Shown: positions 21,610 to 40,050 of the stretch, one piece after another
Numbering within the stretch: position 1 is the stretch's first letter
How the letters are laid out: every line of letters begins with the position of its first letter
Origin: Thelonectria olida
Taxonomy: Eukaryota > Ascomycota > Sordariomycetes > Hypocreales > Nectriaceae
Assembly (NCBI GenBank): GCA_020736575.1
Contig: JAGPYM010000001.1
Coordinates: forward strand, 1,302,001 to 1,366,000
Direction of reading: 5' to 3'
Length of the DNA stretch: 64,000 nucleotides
Program-made: the position numbers and the translations under genes
The notes under the pieces: model-generated
What the model was told of the DNA's origin: nothing
Database searches by the model: none
Seen by the model: the letters and a program-made list of their open reading frames with translations, nothing else

Positions 21610-21755
21610 GACTCACCACCCGTTCGCAGGAGCCCGCTGCTCAGCCGACGACGGAGGCTCAGCGGACTCGACCTTTGAACAGTAAAGGTCGCAAAGCACA
21701 GAACCCGTAAACTACCAATCAAACAACCCAACTTCCACGCCAACTCCAGTCAATC

Positions 21756-23441
21756 ATGGCTCCTCATGCGGAAGTCGGCTCTACGGGCTCCTCGAACGGG
21801 GCGGTTTACACCAACGGCAGAGGCTCCTCTACTCCCCAGGACCTCTTCACCGTCAACTCACCCAATGTTACCTACAGCGAGTCGGAAATTCGCTCCAAGT
21901 ACACCTATCGCACCACAAAGGTTGAGACCAATGCCGAGGGACAGTACGTTGCTACTCCCCAGGAGACCCTCTACGACTTCAAGGTCGACCGCAAGGTCCC
22001 CAAGGTCGGTATGATGTTGGTCGGCTGGGGTGGTAACAACGGTACCACTGTTACCGCCGGTATTCTCGCCAATCGCCGTAACCTCGCCTGGGAGACCAAG
22101 GAGGGTCCCCAGGAGGCAAACTACTACGGCTCTGTTGTCATGGGCTCGACTCTCAAGCTCGGTACTGACGCCAAGACTCACCGAGAGGTCAACATTCCTT
22201 TCCACAACATCCTGCCCATGGTCCACCCCAATGATCTCGTCATTGGCGGTTGGGACATTAGCGGATTCAACCTGGCCAAGGCCATGGACCGCGCTCAGGT
22301 CCTTGAGCCTGCCCTCAAGACTCAAGTTAGGAAGGAGATGACCGAGATGGTCCCCCTTCCCTCCATCTACTACCCTGACTTCATCGCTGCCAACCAGGAG
22401 GATCGCGCTGACAATGTCCTTGAGGGCACTAAGGCCTCCACGGCTCACGTCGAGGAGATCCGCAAGAACATTCGTGACTTCAAGGCCAACAACCACCTTG
22501 ACAAGGTCATTGTCATGTGGACTGCCAACACTGAGCGATACGCCGACTTGGTCCAGGGAGTCAACGACACGGCTGACAACCTTCTCAAGTCTATTGAGCA
22601 GGGCCACGAAGAGGTTTCTCCCTCCACCGTTTTCGCCGTTGCTTGTATTCTCGAGAACACTCCCTTCATCAACGGCTCTCCCCAGAACACCTTCGTTCCT
22701 GGAGCCATTGAGCTGGCCGAGCGCCACAACTCCTTCATTGGAGGTGACGATTTCAAGTCTGGTCAGACCAAGATGAAGTCTGCCCTCGTTGACTTCCTCA
22801 TCAACGCCGGTATCAAGCTGAAGTCGATTGCCAGCTACAACCACCTTGGCAACAACGATGGCAAGAACCTGAGCTCCCAGAAGCAGTTCCGCTCCAAGGA
22901 GATTTCCAAGTCCAACGTCGTCGATGACATGGTTGAGGCGAACCACGTCCTGTACAAGAAGGGCGAGCACCCCGACCACTGCGTCGTCATCAAGTACATG
23001 CCGGCAGTTGCGGACAACAAAAGAGCTCTCGATGAGTACTACGCTGAGATTTTCCTCGGTGGCCACCAGACTATTTCGTAAGTTCAAGTTGCTGTCTAAA
23101 CCCAAGAAACTATCAGCTAATCATGCCACAGTATGTTCAACATTTGCGAGGACTCTCTCCTGGCTTCACCCCTGATCATTGACCTGGTTATTATTGCCGA
23201 GATGATGTCTCGTATCCAGTGGAAGGCTGCTTCCACCGACGGCGCCACCACTGCCGAGTACAAGAACTTCCACAGCGTTCTGAGCGTCCTCAGCTACATG
23301 CTCAAAGCTCCCCTGACTCCTCCCGGCACTCCCGTTGTCAACGCTCTTGCCAAGCAGCGTGCCGCTTTAAGCAACATCTTCCGCGCTTGCGTTGGTCTTG
23401 AGCCCGAGTCTGACATGACTTTGGAGCACAAGCTCTTCTAA
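21756..23441 (+). CDS. INO1: inositol-3-phosphate synthase, 543 aa
   Basis: It converts glucose 6-phosphate to 1D-myo-inositol 3-phosphate with bound NAD, the first step of inositol and phosphatidylinositol synthesis, in the cytosol. Two exons, 21756-23077 and 23132-23441, join across a 54-nt intron (TC|T makes Ser). The NAD-binding glycine loop GWGGNNGTT is at 90-98; other family blocks are seen in order: [82 protein letters not shown] and [10 protein letters not shown]. The catalytic-domain lysines lie in the conserved DDFKSGQTK and adjoining blocks. Length matches fungal Ino1 (about 530). The ATG sits in a good context (CAATCATGGC). No ICRE-type element was identified by eye in the promoter. 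The antisense 415-codon frame is a shadow. Confidence 0.97.
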
Positions 23442-24791: not shown

Positions 24792-27056
24792 CTATGAAAT
24801 GAGGCCCTGAGGTCGGTTGTCTTGCATCTCTTGCACTACAACATCATACCACGCATACAGAGCTTCGTCCATGTCGACCATGCCGCCCTCGAGAAAGTCA
24901 TTCACCTGATCGAGGTACGTCTCCATGCTTTCGCCCGCAGGGTACATCATGTCATCGTCTCCCTGGAAGTCGAGAACACCGGTCGTGTCGTAGGCTCCTC
25001 CTCTGGTCGGGGGCACTTCCGTGTTTCGTATCGACGACTCGTAGGCGGATGCGTCGGTGGGCGTTGCGTCTTCGTAGACTTTGCTTCTTACAGCTCGAAA
25101 CAGGTCACGGTAGCGAATGAGGTTCGGAGCCTTCATGTGAGAAACTCCACGGTCGATGAGGCCGAGACAAAACGCCGTGTCGTTTTCGTGGCGGTGAGAT
25201 GCTCGTACGCTCTGGGTCCTGCTGGACTGAGGCATCGCTTTGTTCTGCCTATCGCCGGGGAACCTCGTTAAAACAATGTCCACAGACCTTCTCGTCACGA
25301 TGCTTACCAGTCACAATACAAAGCAGCGAGCCCGACAAGCAACACTGAATGCAATTGTTTGAAGCATCTGCAAACTGCCGAGATGCCAAACTCGGTCTCA
25401 ATCATGGACCACTGGTGCACCGCGCTCGAAGCAGCCTTGGAACATGACGATATCATCTGCCGCGACGGAATCATAAAGGTCGGAGAGGGCCGATGGAGCA
25501 GGAGCTGAAGAAGGCAATACTCGACCTTCATCTCGGAATACTCGCGTGAGGGCTTCAAATCTAGTTCTTCGAGCTGTCTCTTCCAGCTCTCTAACTCCTT
25601 GCGGACTTCATCTGACCGGGCGCAGATCTGCTGGAAGGACGTGTTCATTGCCTTGCCGTCGGGTCCTCTGGCAATGTAGATGGACTCGAGGATGCGTCCG
25701 GAAATTCGTCTCAAGGATATCATTCGACGAAACAGTTCGACCGTGTGCTTGTGGAAGACTGGCGCGGCTGACGCCTCTGTGCTGCTTAGAACGTCCAAAG
25801 ATGACGGCGACGGCAACATCGCATGAATCGCATGGTCTCTGATGGACAGCACACGGCCCGTGATGACTGCCACATGCCTGCGAGGTTATAAGTCAGGGGC
25901 AAAGCTGAGAAGATGGAGGGTTAGGACGCATACCTTTCTAGATTATATGCGCACCACCAAGTGCGGTTTCGAATCTCCATCTCTTCGGCCGTGAACCCCC
26001 AGTCAGTGTTGTGTCGATGGAGACCTAATTCGATGGCGGCAGACATGACGTATCGACTAAGCTGCCATAGGTCGTTGTTGTGGCTTGCGGAAGCAGAGTT
26101 GAGCATCCATATGGTGAGGAGCACAACTGCTTGAATTCCGAACAGATCCCGAGGATGGTCATGAAAAGAGTTGAAGAATCGCAAGCTAGTCTGAAAATAT
26201 GCGACAGCGTCGTTGAGGTCAATCAGTCCTGGCTGCGAGTTACTCTGGCCATCCTCGTCGCTCGCAAGAGCCAGCACAATAAAGACCATGAACTTCTGGT
26301 CGTCGGTACATTGCCTCGGGTTTTGATACATGCTCTGGAACGTTCTTCGAAGGATGGGAAGCTGAAGGACCGGCCACCAGACATGAATGCGAGCGATGTA
26401 GGCGCCGAGGTAGCTTCTTGCGATGGCTTGTGGCGGCAGAGCAGCACATCTCTCGGACAGACACTGGTCCAAGCTGCCACCCAGGCGGCCTGTAGTCCAC
26501 GGGGGTTCGAGGTTCAGCTGCTTGAAGAAGATGCGGGCAAATGTCGAGCCAGCTGCGCTGCCCACTGGAGATGCGACATGGTTAGGATGCGTTAGGGGAC
26601 ATGACAGAGTGGAATGGCTGACCATATTTACTATCCGAGTGAGGACTCGGCCCCCCGATGGCTAGAACACCAACTTCCTCGGCCTCCTTGTGGAGGTCCA
26701 AGTTCTGCGATGGACTGTCTCGTGGTGGTACAAGGTGATTGAGTGTTGCTGCAAGGGGGGGTTGAGCTGTGGTGGTAGAGACGAGAGCGAGCCTCGCTTG
26801 AAGATGGTCAATCTGATTTCGGAGATCTTCAATGGCAGAAAACGGATACGCAACGCATTCGGTAATGTTGCACGCGTCGTTCTGTCGGATGCATGCTGAG
26901 CATTTAGGAACCTTTTGGTCGCACTGCCGTCGGGGTGAGCCGAGGGACGAATGGGGGGGGGATTGGGCCGGCTACCTTTACTTTGCGTGCATGGCACCGA
27001 CTGCAGGCCTTGGAGACGGACGGCTTGATCAGGCTGGGTTCTAATTCGCTATTCAT
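24792..27056 (-). CDS. Zn2Cys6 fungal transcription factor, 679 aa
   Basis: Five exons: 27056-26976, 26923-26623, 26564-25934, 25877-25308, 25248-24792; introns of 52, 58, 56 and 59 nt; every join keeps frame. The zinc cluster is complete: Cys18, 21, 28, 35, 38 and 45 in the pattern C-X2-C-X6-C-X6-C-X2-C-X6-C, and the first intron falls exactly before Cys28. A short coiled-coil heptad stretch (about 55-72) would dimerise it. The middle part matches the fungal-specific TF domain (PF04082 type): YVGSAAGSTFARIF near 127, then SRYVMSAAIELGLHR and RNRTWWCAYNLER. The C-terminus is acidic (GDDDMMYPAGESMETYLDQ), a likely activation region. It is divergent from the aminotransferase gene; palindromic CGG-N6-CCG sites in that shared promoter suggest autoregulation and control of its neighbours. 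The family of its target pathway is unknown. Confidence 0.92.
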
Positions 27057-27076
27057 GGCTTATGGAGAGCGCTGGG

Positions 27077-27087
27077 CCGAGTCCGAG
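27077..27087. promoter_or_regulatory. two direct CCGAG half-sites in the divergent promoter
   Basis: CCGAG occurs at 27077-27081 and again at 27083-27087, the same half-site that forms the two full palindromes downstream. They lie immediately upstream of the start codon of the Zn2Cys6 gene. Weak by themselves. Confidence 0.4.
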
Positions 27088-27128
27088 ATGGTCGGGGAGT
27101 GTGTGAGAGGTGAAGAATGGAACGACGC

Positions 27129-27144
27129 CTCGGTCGTATCCGAG
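27129..27144. promoter_or_regulatory. palindromic Zn2Cys6 site CTCGG-N6-CCGAG, copy 1
   Basis: Exact inverted repeat CTCGG / CCGAG with a 6-nt spacer, in the 267-bp divergent promoter between the regulator (start 27056) and the aminotransferase (start 27324). Zn2Cys6 dimers of the Ppr1/UaY type are known to bind CGG-N6-CCG; that this regulator binds here is inference. Confidence 0.75.
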
Positions 27145-27168
27145 ATGACAGATGGTGGTGGAGTAGGT

Positions 27169-27184
27169 CTCGGTCGCGCCCGAG
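27169..27184. promoter_or_regulatory. palindromic Zn2Cys6 site CTCGG-N6-CCGAG, copy 2
   Basis: Exact second copy, 40 bp after the first (about four helical turns), so two dimers could sit on the same face of the helix. The spacer begins TCG as in copy 1 but then differs, which suggests that the arms are what is conserved. Confidence 0.75.
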
Positions 27185-27323
27185 GGAGCATCTGTTGACC
27201 AGACGAGGCCACTTTGAAGACGAGGTGGCAAGTCGTCTTTGTCTTTGTTTTTATTAACGAGCATTGTCTCATAGTCTCATCTTATTCCATCATTCTCGCC
27301 GAGTGCCTCATATCTCTGACAAG

Positions 27324-28500
27324 ATGCCGTCTTCGCACGCCAACGGAAGCAACGGCGTGGGCGCCACCCATGCCACCGTTCCGAATTCCAAGAACGAGTC
27401 TATTGTTGTGAGTATTCGCACCTGTGCGTGCCTGCTTGCTGCTTCGAAGACTGAGAGTTGCTCACAATACGTGCATCTAGATTGGAATGCGTGATGGAGT
27501 AACCGGCGACTTCAATCTCGTCCCTAGGGAACAGGCCGTTGTGTCCGTGTTCGACTCCAACTTTCTCGTTGGCGATGGCATCTGGGTTTGTCCACGTCCA
27601 TCAGGACCATTCGCTCTAGCCGGCAACTAACGACTTTGACAGGAAGGCATCCGCGCCAACAGAGGCAAGGTCCAATTCGCCAAGGATCACATAGATAGGC
27701 TTTTCCAGGCCGCCAAGGCAATGTACATGGATCTCGGCCTCACAAAGGGAGCCCTCCTCAGCCTCATTCACGACACTCTCGATGCCAACAACATGTCTGA
27801 TGAAGCTCATGTCCACATGCGACTCGTTGTGAGCCGCGGCGTCAAGTCAACACCATACCAGAACCCTCACGTCAACATTGGTCTGCCACTCATTGTCATC
27901 ATCCCAGAGGTCAAGGCCGTCGACCCATCATCCAAGTCCCGAGGCCTCAGGCTGGGCACGACGTGGGTTCGTCGAGGGCCTCCCGACGTCAAGGACGAAC
28001 AATGGAATCACATTTCGAAAGCTACAGACGTGCAAGCCTGCATCAGCGCAAACGTGATGAGCGTTGACGAAGCCTTGATGCTGGATCTGCGAGGGTTCGT
28101 CAAGACATGCAACTCGGTCAACTTCTTCATCATCCGCGGGAACGAGGTGTGGGCGCCCACAAAAGACAACCAGATGCAGGGTATCACGCGGCAGAGGACG
28201 ATTGACGTCTGCCGCGCTCACGGCATTGTTGTTCGGGAGCTGGACTTTGCTTTGACTGAGGTGTACGGAGCTGATGAGGCATTCTGCACGGGGACGTTTC
28301 CCTCGCAGATCCACGTCGTGGAAGTTGACGGTCGGACGATTGGCGATGGCAAGAGGGGACCTGTGACGGAGAAGATCCAGCAACTGTATGCTGAGCTCGT
28401 GAAGAGGGATGTGGCAAGATCGCGAGAGGAAATCATGGCCGAGTTGGAAGCGCCACGCGATCTGAGCTTCCTCAAGACTATTGGCGTCTACTTAGAATGA
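27324..28500 (+). CDS. PLP-dependent class IV aminotransferase, 348 aa
   Basis: Three exons, 27324-27407, 27481-27585, 27643-28500; introns of 73 and 57 nt, both phase 0. The fold-type IV aminotransferase layout is clear: IGMRDGVTGDF and FDSNFLVGDGIWEGIRANRG in the N-terminal lobe, Lys189 in HISKATD as the probable PLP Schiff-base lysine, and the class IV signature around CNSVNFFII...MQGITRQ. The family includes branched-chain, D-amino acid and (R)-selective amine transaminases plus aminodeoxychorismate lyase; sequence alone does not tell which substrate is used. No mitochondrial presequence is evident, so a cytosolic enzyme is likely. It shares a 267-bp divergent promoter with the Zn2Cys6 gene, and the next gene is a permease, so a catabolic or assimilatory role for an imported amine or amino acid is a reasonable inference. 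Confidence 0.9.
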
Positions 28501-28754
28501 GACATTTATTTTGATTTAAAAATCCGAGCTGCCATGAGAGATGAGATTGAGAGCCTTGAAGACAGTATCAATGGCTTGGCAAATCCATTGCGTCTCTTCC
28601 AAGCAGCGACAAGCATGTCATCCTTGGATACAGGAACTTGGCTGACTGCAGGTTTAGACGAAACTCATGGCATTTAACTAACCCGCCCGTTTCTGATAAT
28701 AAACTACGGAAATAGTAAACCGGTCGTAATCTTGGACCCGCGAACTGACAGCAT

Positions 28755-28770
28755 CTCGGTCGAGTCCGAG
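28755..28770. promoter_or_regulatory. palindromic Zn2Cys6 site CTCGG-N6-CCGAG, copy 3
   Basis: Exact match of both arms and spacer length to copies 1 and 2, upstream of the permease. The spacer again starts with TCG. Confidence 0.75.
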
Positions 28771-28812
28771 GGCTGCATTCTTGCTGGGCCGTAACCCGCT
28801 CTGACCAGGTGC

Positions 28813-28828
28813 TTCGGTGTGCACCGAG
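28813..28828. promoter_or_regulatory. near-palindromic site TTCGG-N6-CCGAG, copy 4
   Basis: One mismatch in the outermost base of the left arm; the TCGG-N6-CCGA core is intact. Confidence 0.65.
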
Positions 28829-28842
28829 CTGCAACTGTATAT

Positions 28843-28858
28843 CTCGGGAGCCACCGAG
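28843..28858. promoter_or_regulatory. palindromic Zn2Cys6 site CTCGG-N6-CCGAG, copy 5
   Basis: Exact copy, 30 bp after copy 4 (about three helical turns). Its spacer does not begin with TCG, which argues that the palindrome is selected rather than duplicated as a block. Confidence 0.75.
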
Positions 28859-29136
28859 GATCCTAGTGCAAACGCAATCGGGTGGAACCATGATAACATG
28901 GAGAACGCGAATGCTGGCTCTTCTCACTGGCTGATAAGACGTAGGGATACAGGGTAAACACCCCATCTCTGTGATATATATATCATGCGGAGGGTTGCTG
29001 GACGGAAAACGAGACAGCCATAGGACCAATCAAGGCTGAAGGACTCTTCTCCTGCGAGCAAAGTCCTCACCAAAGGATCCAGCATCTCAAGGTCCATTGC
29101 CTCAATCTCTCATTCAGTGCCCCTAAAGTCTTGACA

Positions 29137-30845
29137 ATGACTTCGCAACACAATCAGGACTACACCTCGAAAGAGATGGAGCAGGAGCCCGTTGTCAAAG
29201 GCCAACTCTCCGGCGCCGACATGGAGTTGAGCGAAGCCCAAGCAAAACGACTCCTGAGGAAGACGGATCTCGTCGTTATGCCCCTCGCTGTTCTCAGCAT
29301 GACACTTGCGTTCCTCGACAAGGCAAGTGACTCGATCACCTCCTGAGCCATCTCATGACTGACTTTAAGCATAGAACGCCCTTGGCTACGCTGCCATCTT
29401 CGGCATCAAAGACGACGCGCACCTCCAAGGCCAGGAATACAGCTGGCTCAGCAGCATCTTCTACTTTGGCTACCTCGCCATGGAATTCCCCAACCTGTGG
29501 CTCATGACCAAGCTTCCCATTGGCAAATACATCGGAGTGTGTCTTTCCCTCTGGGGAATCTGTCTCTGCTTCATGGCTCTGTGCCACAACTTTGCTGGGC
29601 TGGCCACGATCCGATTTCTCCTGGGCGTCTTCGAAGCCGCCCTGCTGCCGTGCATGATGATTGTCAACTCCATGTGGTACAGGCGGGAGGAGCAGCCGCT
29701 CCGCACGGCGTTCTGGTATAATACTTTCGCGGGCGTGTTTGGCGGCATCTTGTCTTATGCCATTGGGCAAATCAACGGGTCCCTAGCGACTTGGAGGGTG
29801 CGTCTCAACCCGTCGTCAAGTGTCGAGTCGACTAACTGTTTCGTGTTTAGTACATTTTCATCATTTACGGCGCGGTGACAGTGGCTTCTGGCGTGCTTCT
29901 CTTCTTTGGTCTTCCAGATTCTCCTTCCAAAGCCTGGTTCTTCACCGAGGAGGAGAAGAAGTTGGCCGTAATTCGCCTTGCGGACAACCAAACCGGCGTC
30001 GAGTCACACAAGGTATGTCGGCAAACCCAGCTGGTGTGCTCACGAGACTGACATATCACCTAGCGATTCAAACCAGCACAGATCCTCGAGGCCCTGTGCG
30101 ATCCCAAGTGCTACTGCATCTGGGTTGGCGCCTTTGGCTACGCCATTGTCAACGCCGGAGTCACAAACTTCAACCCTCTCATCATTGCCGGCTACGGCTT
30201 CAGCAAGACCAAGACGGTCCTGATGGCCACTCCGCAGGCTGCCGTCGCCATGGTCAGCCAGGCCATTCTCACCACCATCTCCTTCTTCGTGCCCAACCTG
30301 CGGTGCTTCTTTTGGATCGCGTCGGCTCTCATCGGCATGATGGGTGCCATTCTGGTCCATGTTCTCAACGCCGAGACGCAGAGAGATGCCTCGCTGGCTG
30401 GCGTCTATCTGATGGGCTTTTACAACGTTCCCTGGGTGTTTCTGCTTAGTCTGTCTTCTTCTAATACTGCTGGTGCCACGAAGAAGAGTTTCATGGGTGT
30501 TTCGATCGCCGTCGTCTATGGTAAGTTCCACCAGACCACTTCGTTCATCTCCAGCAACTGTATCATGGCTAACAAGGGACCTAACTAGCCGTCGGCAACA
30601 TTGTCGGTCCCCAGTTCTACAGGGAGAGCCAAGCGCCCAGATACCCTCTCGGAATCGGATCAATCATGTGCGCCTTTGCTGTGATCGCATTCGTGGGGTT
30701 GGTCTACTATGTTCTCTGCGCCATTGAGAACAAGCGCCGGGATGGAAAGTATGGAAAGCCGCAGGACGTCGCCGAGTCTGGTCTTGAGGCGGAGAGGGAG
30801 GATAAAACGGACGGACAGAACTTCAACTTTAGATATACGTATTAG
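29137..30845 (+). CDS. MFS permease, Dal5/anion:cation symporter type, 494 aa
   Basis: Five exons: 29137-29322, 29375-29797, 29851-30012, 30064-30520, 30589-30845. Intron 1 (52 nt) has a GCAAGT donor, a GC-AG intron; the other three (53, 51, 68 nt) are GT-AG. All joins keep frame. The protein has the layout of the fungal allantoate permease family: a cytosolic N-terminus with RLLRKTDLVVMPL, LDKNALGYAAIFG at the end of helix 1, an FLLGVFEAALLPC stretch in helix 4, MWYRREEQPLRTAFWY after it, a charged central loop, and YAVGNIVGPQFY in the late helices. Members import organic anions such as allantoate, ureidosuccinate, nicotinate or related small molecules at the plasma membrane. The promoter contains three copies of the putative binding palindrome of the neighbouring Zn2Cys6 regulator, so co-regulation with the aminotransferase is likely. 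The substrate is unknown. Confidence 0.9.
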
Positions 30846-38939: not shown

Positions 38940-40050
38940 TTAGTATTTAGTGTACCAGCCATTTGCATCTCTCACGGCCTTCAGCCTCTTGGGCATTGAT
39001 TTCCATAGGCTGGCTAGGACCCTATCTTCAATGCCCTCCCAGGCTTCAATAGCAGCCTGCACAAGCAGCTGTTTAGTCCTATCCGTTCGAGGCATCTCAT
39101 TCAATTCGGGATATGCCTGAATGATCCGGGTTTTTATTAGGGGCCAGATGTTTTCGATGGGGTTGAGGTCAGGGCTATAAGGGGGGAAATTGGCGATGGC
39201 GACCCCATTCTCTTCAGCCCAGTCTTGGAGCCAGATTTGAACTATTCCAGCTGTATGCACGGGTGCATTATCTTGTTGGAATGTATAGCCCGGTTCAGCT
39301 ATAGTTGGGAGGTTTTCTTCAAGGCAGGCTTGAATTCGGCGGCCTGTTACTCTCCCCCGAGGTGCCTCGGGGTCCCCAATCAAAGGCACTAGAGACGTGC
39401 GTCTCAAGCCTGCAATTCCGCCCCAAAACATTTGAGAATGTCGTGACGGCTTCTCCTTTGGCTGTACATGCTTTGGATATAATCGCTCTCCCTATATCTC
39501 TATTAGTTATTGAGAAATCGCAGAGTTCAGAAGTCGCACCCTTCGGCAGAAAACCCACTTCTGTCTCTCTCCTTGTCCCCTGACAATAGTAACTTCATCC
39601 GTGAAAGTTCCAAACCTTCCAAAAGCTGACCGGCTTTTCTGAATAGCTTCTTGCAAATTCAAGCCGTATTTGAGCTATTTCTGGCGTTAATTTGGGCCGC
39701 CGCAGAGCTGTCCAGTGTTCAATACCCTCTTTTCGAAGGTACCAGCTTATAGTTAGAATTGAACAGCTTAGGCTAGCTTCTTCGATTAAATCCCTATGCT
39801 GTATGAAAGGGTTGCTATTAATAAGTATAAAGATATGTCTTTTATCGCGTTCGGTCAATACAGAAGGGCGGCCAGAGCGAGGTCGGTCTTATGCACTCTC
39901 TTAGTACCTATAACGCGCAACAATCGCATAGACAGCTCGGTCGGAAATGCCCTCTTCAGCCCCAATTCTGCGCGCTGTCTTGCCTAAAAAATAGGATGTT
40001 GCAATCCTTGTTCTTTTGTGAGGTGAATGATTCGGCCCTGACCTCGGCAT
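38940..40050 (-). pseudogene. Tc1/mariner transposase pseudogene
   Basis: The frame starts at ATG 40050 with MPRSGPN and a helix-turn-helix region (KTARRIGAEEGISDRAV), then hits two TAA stops at 39903-39901 and 39891-39889, continues through a second helix-turn-helix-like part (TERDKRHIF...RDLIEEASL), and loses frame near 39600 at the FWK...DEVTIV junction; a further frame change occurs before MFWGGI. The catalytic half is readable: DEVTIVRGQGERQKW, FQQDNAPVHT and YSPDLNPIENIW, with about 38 residues between the last Asp and Glu by my count, longer than the 34 of Tc1. Two stops at what look like former CAA or CGA codons fit C-to-T change of the RIP kind, but two events are thin evidence. The element cannot make an intact transposase. 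Confidence 0.85.

What the first reader, a model, noticed from the sequence alone, without database searches (positions are those of the whole stretch)
27077..28858. A five-site palindrome CTCGG-N6-CCGAG defines a regulator-aminotransferase-permease regulon
Four exact copies and one copy with one mismatch of CTCGG-N6-CCGAG are seen, two in the 267-bp divergent promoter between a Zn2Cys6 gene and a class IV aminotransferase gene, three in the promoter of the next gene, a Dal5-type permease. By eye I found no copy elsewhere in the window. An exact 10-base match with fixed spacing should occur by chance less than once in 100 kb. CGG-N6-CCG is the known site type of Ppr1/UaY-like Zn2Cys6 dimers. 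The spacers differ between copies while the arms do not, as for a selected binding site. The inference is a small inducible uptake-and-transamination module with its own autoregulated activator.
Basis: partly seen in the sequence, partly recalled or inferred. Interest (0 to 1): 0.88.

Follow-up and report, generated by a model that had tools for sequence, protein, structure and literature searches.

The report
Fungal uptake module with private switch
In a fungus, a three-gene unit (a gene switch, an importer and an enzyme-like protein) carries a tight group of matching DNA docking sites, and the enzyme-like protein seems to lack the amino acid that its supposed chemistry normally needs, so what the unit does is open.

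Summary
Four exact CTCGG-N6-CCGAG copies and one with an outer mismatch lie where stated. The genome (Thelonectria olida by protein identity, 52.5 Mb) has 81 exact copies; only these four lie within 2 kb of one another. Five control patterns give 60-75, so the signal is this locus, not a large regulon.

Regulator, class IV protein and permease are linked in several other fungi. I read the sites as targets of the adjacent Zn2Cys6 regulator; binding and activation are inferred. A UaY-like regulator is a live rival: one of four purine-permease loci has a site with the same core.

The 'transamination' step is doubtful. The Schiff-base lysine column is Asn in 120 of 120 listed relatives and 80 of 80 fetched bacterial loci; the nearest solved structure is an 'aminotransferase-like protein' also made as an N174K mutant. 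Three alignments (two of four) instead put a fungal lysine, Lys180, on that column. Bacterial relatives often lie near amino-acid-type ABC importer genes. Site conservation in relatives could not be tested.

The parts
24792..27056 (-). Zn2Cys6 regulator gene, 679 aa, five exons (27056-26976, 26923-26623, 26564-25934, 25877-25308, 25248-24792)
   Evidence: gene model, 100% identical to public protein P0121; Zn_clus and Fungal_trans above Pfam cut-off
26924..26975 (-). first intron of the regulator, splitting the zinc-cluster motif
26929..26944 (.). weaker sixth copy GTCGG-GGTGAG-CCGAG (one outer mismatch, CGG cores intact), inside regulator intron 1
27072..27087 (.). degenerate copy CTGGG-CCGAGT-CCGAG just upstream of the regulator start; one CGG core broken; shares CCGAGATG with the 27129 copy
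27129..27144 (.). exact palindrome, divergent promoter
27169..27184 (.). exact palindrome, divergent promoter
27057..27323 (.). 267-bp divergent promoter between regulator and class IV gene
27324..28500 (+). class IV aminotransferase-like gene, 348 aa, exons 27324-27407, 27481-27585, 27643-28500; Asn185 at the Schiff-base lysine column
28755..28770 (.). exact palindrome, permease promoter
28813..28828 (.). palindrome with one outer mismatch (TTCGG), permease promoter
28843..28858 (.). exact palindrome, permease promoter
28501..29136 (.). 636-bp promoter of the permease; three TGATAA boxes at 28694, 28891 and 28932 (not above chance: 138 of 500 shuffles reach three)
29137..30845 (+). MFS permease gene, 494 aa, five exons, first intron read as GC-AG
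   Evidence: 100% identical to P0205; MFS_1 above cut-off

Best explanation
A self-contained small-molecule uptake module. The Zn2Cys6 protein binds as a dimer to CTCGG-N6-CCGAG in the divergent promoter and in the permease promoter and switches on itself, the class IV protein and the permease when its (unknown) inducer, probably the imported nitrogen compound, is present. The permease brings the compound in and the class IV protein acts on it. That protein is not expected to work as an ordinary transaminase: it keeps the fold and phosphate-cup residues but has Asn, Thr and Lys where class IV enzymes have the Schiff-base Lys, an acidic residue at the cofactor ring and a Tyr. Shown here: genes, sites, their clustering, linkage in other fungi. 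Shown with some dissent: the residue replacement. Inferred: binding, activation, self-control, inducer, substrate.
For: Sites and clustering. Module: Pfam; consecutive locus tags for regulator, class IV protein and permease in Phialemonium thermophilum (VTK73DRAFT_803/804/805), adjacent regulator and class IV tags in Neonectria ditissima and Emericellopsis cladophorae, adjacent regulator and permease tags in Ilyonectria robusta. By shared contig length all three occur together in 10 cases and class IV plus regulator in 20, each count including T. olida itself; five of the 20 are contigs of 7-28 kb, most of the rest far longer. Zinc cluster is the best conserved of eight stretches of the regulator in 31 models; a leucine-rich stretch after it looks like a dimer coil (my reading). 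Enzyme. Bacterial relatives have an ABC ATPase within six genes in 31 of 80 loci.
Against: No DNA of related fungi was available, so site conservation is untested. The core TCGG-N6-CCGA also stands before one purine-permease gene, so another regulator could own these sites. Linkage is not universal: Aspergillus californicus has the regulator on another contig; Penicillium psychrofluorescens has class IV protein and permease on different contigs; tags are 3, 9, 12 and 27 apart in Fusarium nematophilum, F. decemcellulare, Curvularia kusanoi and Talaromyces verruculosus. In eight Colletotrichum models regulator and class IV protein are fused, which if right puts them on one strand and does away with the divergent promoter. 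On the enzyme, two of four tblastn alignments to paralogues and one profile alignment put Lys180 on the catalytic lysine, at the price of two cancelling five-residue gaps.
Confidence: 0.68

Rival explanations
1. The sites belong to a UaY-type purine regulator (or another N6 zinc-cluster factor) and the module is part of purine or ureide use; the neighbouring regulator acts elsewhere.
For: The core TCGG-N6-CCGA equals the UaY site as I recall it; one of the four PF00860 purine-permease loci of this genome has such a core about 250 bp upstream; several relatives of the permease are named 'allantoate permease' and one regulator relative 'purine utilization positive regulator' by their sources.
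Against: The other three PF00860 loci and the uricase region have no such core in the stretches fetched; five cores lie in these two promoters, and scans for two cores 0-92 bp apart found only single pairs elsewhere; a zinc-cluster gene is divergently placed in the same promoter and linked in other fungi.
Confidence: 0.17
2. The class IV protein is a working transaminase after all, with Lys180 or Lys189 serving as the Schiff-base lysine.
For: Lys180 and Lys189 are invariant in 120 of 120 listed relatives; two of four tblastn alignments to paralogues and a profile alignment match Lys180 to the catalytic lysine; phosphate-cup residues are kept.
Against: The other two tblastn alignments, phmmer to 5mqz and 7z79 and MAFFT put Asn185 there; distances on both sides fit Asn185 without gaps for the three lysine-bearing comparators checked, 5mqz, L009 and L011; bacterial relatives have Phe, Gln or Leu at 180 and Arg or Lys at 189; the acidic residue at the cofactor ring is also replaced.
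Confidence: 0.2
3. The local regulator is a repressor, or the sites act on only one of the two promoters.
For: Nothing in the sequence fixes the sign of control.
Against: Cluster-linked Zn2Cys6 proteins with a Fungal_trans domain are commonly activators (general knowledge, not tested).
Confidence: 0.12
4. The clustering is chance or a leftover of a duplicated stretch.
For: Stretches 27168-27186 and 28754-28772 are 89% alike over 19 nt.
Against: No longer repeat joins the two promoters; 0 of 1000 promoter shuffles gave even one exact copy; no other cluster among 81 exact sites.
Confidence: 0.01

Closest known systems
UaY of Aspergillus nidulans / Ppr1 of yeast (zinc-cluster dimers on CGG-N6-CCG)
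   Same: Zinc cluster best matched by Ppr1 among solved structures (weak, E 1.3e-4); same triplets and spacer length (site type recalled).
   Different: Regulator is 679 aa and sits in its own cluster; arms here extend to CTCGG; orthology to UaY not tested.
Variovorax paradoxus aminotransferase-like protein (PDB 7z79; N174K mutant 9j32)
   Different: Bacterial; Phe at the column where fungi have Lys180. The genome around that very protein was not examined.
A. nidulans nicotinate (hxn) cluster
   Same: Small inducible cluster with its own regulator and MFS genes (passages of PMC5746545).
   Different: Regulator is a C2H2 zinc finger; other enzymes.
A. nidulans class IV branched-chain aminotransferases BatA-F
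   Same: Pfam PF01063 (passage of PMC8262921).
   [quoted passage not shown] here the column is Asn.
PDR-1/RhaR
   Same: TCGG half-sites in a palindrome (passages of PMC5469009).
   Different: Spacer is 11, not 6.

Membership tests
Zn2Cys6 (Gal4-type) regulators | Zinc-cluster domain and Fungal_trans domain | tested here: met
   Pfam 30.4 bits (cut-off 21) and 90.1 bits (cut-off 23)
Zn2Cys6 (Gal4-type) regulators | Binds paired CGG triplets as a dimer | not testable with these tools
   Sites present; binding needs an assay
UaY/Ppr1 class | Target core TCGG-N6-CCGA | tested here: met
   Five cores in the two promoters; consensus recalled; that this regulator binds them is not shown
UaY/Ppr1 class | Orthology to UaY | not tested
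   No UaY sequence in hand; only one source name
Class IV aminotransferases | PF01063 domain and fold type IV | tested here: met
Class IV aminotransferases | Schiff-base lysine | tested here: not met
   Asn185 in 120 of 120 listed relatives and Asn in 80 of 80 bacterial loci; gapless; dissent: two of four alignments,
Class IV aminotransferases | Acidic residue at the cofactor ring | tested here: not met
   Thr218 in 120 of 120, aligned to a Glu of 5mqz; E/D194 of E. coli BCAT named as conserved in a passage of PMC9309667; that the two are the same residue and its role are my reading
Class IV aminotransferases | Curated NCBIfam score (IlvE, DAAT, PabC models) | tested here: not met
   All 18 matches of P0001 below cut-off, best 217 of 363 bits
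Dal5/TNA1-type anion permeases | MFS_1 and Dal5 branch | tested here: inconclusive
   MFS_1 met; TIGR00893 at 209 bits, cut-off 395; 'allantoate permease' only as names of relatives
Self-regulated catabolic gene cluster | Shared site in regulator, enzyme and permease promoters | tested here: met
Self-regulated catabolic gene cluster | Co-induction by a substrate through the regulator | not testable with these tools
   No expression data
Self-regulated catabolic gene cluster | Sites conserved where the genes stay linked | not testable with these tools
   No fungal DNA besides this genome was found; metagenome scans capped at 0

The most novel reading that the evidence does not exclude
The module is built round a widespread but, as far as my searches show, uncharacterised family that reused the class IV aminotransferase fold for another reaction without a lysine-bound PLP, and bacteria and fungi each paired this protein with their own importer and regulator for the same or similar nitrogen compounds. 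The regulated fungal module would then give a way, through its inducer, to find the reaction.
Probability: 0.5. Interest if true: 0.72.

Novelty: new variant of a known kind. Interest (0 to 1): 0.5.

Why it matters
As a regulatory unit it is a clean case: one regulator, two promoters, and no second clustered target found in 52.5 Mb by these scans, so a single deletion and a DNA-binding assay would settle it. If the lysine-less reading holds, the same unit points to an unassigned chemistry on a familiar fold whose fungal members often carry names such as 'branched-chain aminotransferase', and the module's inducer would name the substrate.

Tried and rejected
Chance: rejected. A large regulon for the exact 16-mer: not supported (77 other copies; controls 66, 67, 75, 60, 63); whether those 77 lie in promoters was not tested. 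Tandem cores elsewhere (gaps of 0-92 bp only): two other pairs, at C46:245983 and C57:825603; the reversed-pattern control gave six pairs in all, its places not listed, so two are no more than chance, and I cannot say whether control pairs cluster. GATA boxes in the permease promoter: not above shuffles. A second copy of the module in this genome: no close second class IV or regulator gene; the permease was not searched for. Four class IV paralogues at 21-26% identity keep a lysine in a common motif by my reading. Scans of genome contigs and viral contigs with the fungal protein found nothing; the alignment with the bacterial chain did. The first gene-caller for bacterial neighbours lost 27 of 80 loci and a follow-up script failed; both were replaced, whose gene calling is crude and counts neighbours up to six genes away. 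On the lysine column, and two of four alignments favour Lys180; I prefer Asn185 because and the bacterial relatives. One search is a hand-cut audit: its six strings include the fungal protein itself and one bacterial protein twice (wild type and mutant), so three are independent lysine-bearing comparators.

Literature: one search listed three papers for the fungal trio, none with a title on it; searches listed no paper with a title on the lysine-less protein; full texts of the listed papers were not read, and papers outside the library were not seen. Searches looked for the UaY and Ppr1 site; I took no consensus from them. Seen of papers: passages of PMC8262921, PMC5469009, PMC5746545 and PMC9309667; the rest only as search listings. 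The UaY and Ppr1 consensus, the roles of class IV active-site residues beyond, and Dal5 naming are recalled.

Counting notes: the 120 relatives are the best 120 of 7165 hits; by my reading, 74 carry fungal names and 46 are unnamed metagenome proteins. The 80 bacterial loci are the best of 580, ranked by likeness to a query that itself has Asn. In one search I compared contig lengths typed: 120 of 120 class IV rows, 69 of 84 regulator rows (the other 15 are distant), 118 of 120 permease rows (two have no contig). A shared length is taken as the same contig and does not show adjacency; one shared value (2831) joins different sources and I drop it. Each count there includes T. olida. In one search, 31 of 67 regulator models hold the six-cysteine motif in the form sought (eight of them near-identical Colletotrichum fusions); others start late or lose a piece.

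Full report
Observation. The palindromes are real and placed as reported: exact at 27129, 27169, 28755 and 28843, one outer mismatch at 28813. Gene models put two in the 267-bp interval between a regulator (minus strand) and a class IV gene (plus strand), and three in the 636-bp interval before a permease gene. A weaker copy with intact CGG cores lies in the regulator's first intron (26929), and a degenerate one just before its start (27072).

Chance. Across the whole window ten places match with up to one mismatch against 2.24 expected; seven of the ten are in 26.9-28.9 kb. In 1000 dinucleotide shuffles of the two promoters no exact copy appeared, TCGG-N6-CCGA occurred once in 10 shuffles and never twice (observed five), and the best count of any 5-mer palindrome with a spacer of 0 to 14 was two, in 10 shuffles (observed four), which covers the look-elsewhere effect.

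Genome. The genome holds 81 exact copies, all listed (34; 47). Only this locus has copies within 2 kb of each other; the next nearest pair is 4.9 kb apart. Controls: reversed pattern 66, same arms with N7 67 and its reverse 75, with N5 60 and its reverse 63. The exact motif is thus at most mildly raised outside the locus. Scans for two TCGG-N6-CCGA cores separated by 0-92 bp found six pairs, four of them here; the reversed pattern also gave six. No wider regulon is shown. Promoter location of the other 77 copies was not examined.

Module. Pfam places the proteins in Zn_clus plus Fungal_trans, Aminotran_4 and MFS_1, all above cut-off. Locus tags show regulator, class IV protein and permease as consecutive numbers in Phialemonium thermophilum, adjacent regulator and class IV numbers in Neonectria ditissima and Emericellopsis cladophorae, and adjacent regulator and permease numbers in Ilyonectria robusta; class IV protein and permease have adjacent numbers in Marssonina, Cirrosporium and the basidiomycetes Rhodosporidiobolus and Sporobolomyces. 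By shared contig length, all three occur together in 10 cases, class IV plus regulator in 20, class IV plus permease in 32 (one of them dropped as coincidence), regulator plus permease in 15, T. olida counted in each; many of these contigs are megabases long. Against: Aspergillus californicus and Penicillium psychrofluorescens break the pattern, tags are 3 to 27 apart in four species, and eight Colletotrichum models fuse regulator and class IV protein. The zinc cluster is the most conserved of eight stretches of the regulator (mean majority share 0.82 over 31 models, next 0.71).

Who binds. The site type fits a zinc-cluster dimer; the nearest solved zinc cluster is Ppr1, weakly. The core also occurs once about 250 bp before the first Met (my reading) of one PF00860 purine-permease gene, while the other three PF00860 loci and the uricase region have none in the stretches fetched. 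A UaY-like factor could thus recognise these sites. I favour the local regulator because of position, clustering and linkage, not because of a binding test.

The class IV protein. Its best solved relatives are 7z79, titled 'aminotransferase-like protein from Variovorax paradoxus', and 9j32, 'mutant N174K'. In phmmer and MAFFT alignments the Schiff-base lysine of 5mqz (as I read it) falls on Asn185, with equal distances on both sides for three lysine-bearing comparators. The column is Asn in 120 of 120 listed relatives and 80 of 80 fetched bacterial loci. Thr218 (120 of 120) aligns with a Glu of 5mqz, Lys189 (120 of 120) with the Tyr four residues after its lysine, while Gly243, Thr245, Arg246 and Thr281 are kept in 120 of 120. 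The predicted model (pLDDT 83.4) starts a helix at residue 185. Against this, two of four tblastn alignments to paralogues and one profile alignment prefer Lys180; they need two cancelling gaps, and bacterial relatives lack that lysine. All 18 NCBIfam matches are below cut-off. I therefore do not file it as an aminotransferase, though it has the fold.

Bacterial context. Among 80 bacterial loci (best of 580), neighbours within six genes included an ABC ATPase in 31, an ABC permease in 25, a family 3 solute-binding protein in 24, a GntR regulator in 16 and a Sulfotransfer_5 protein in 15 (one representative of each named). Import plus a regulator thus recurs near this protein in a part of the bacteria, in parallel with the fungal permease and zinc-cluster gene. 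The substrate is not identified.

Verdict.

Noticed in passing
L018-L097 (bacterial loci): Relatives of the class IV protein, 80 of 80 with Asn at the lysine column, have an amino-acid-type ABC ATPase within six genes in 31 loci and a Sulfotransfer_5 gene in 15.
   Followed up: partly
L113 3484-3529 (G000:C46:245983-246028): Another close pair of TCGG-N6-CCGA cores, in the gap between an aconitase-family ORF and a mitochondrial-carrier ORF that point away from each other.
   Followed up: partly
L114 3604-3691 (G000:C57:825603-825690): A third close pair of cores about 360 bp upstream of the first Met of a 377-aa frame with no Pfam match.
   Followed up: no
L115 1645-1660: CTCGGCCCCATCCGAC upstream of a purine-permease (PF00860) gene: a candidate UaY site.
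   Followed up: partly
window 38940-39491 (-): ORF with a DDE_3 transposase domain, perhaps a mobile-element remnant.
   Followed up: no
window 21711-23081 (+): Inositol-1-phosphate synthase ORF.
   Followed up: no
window 29323-29374: The permease's first intron reads as GC-AG; the resulting protein equals the public model.
   Followed up: no
P0160-P0167: Eight Colletotrichum gene models join zinc cluster, Fungal_trans and Aminotran_4 in one protein of 905-942 aa; real fusion or annotation error is open.
   Followed up: no
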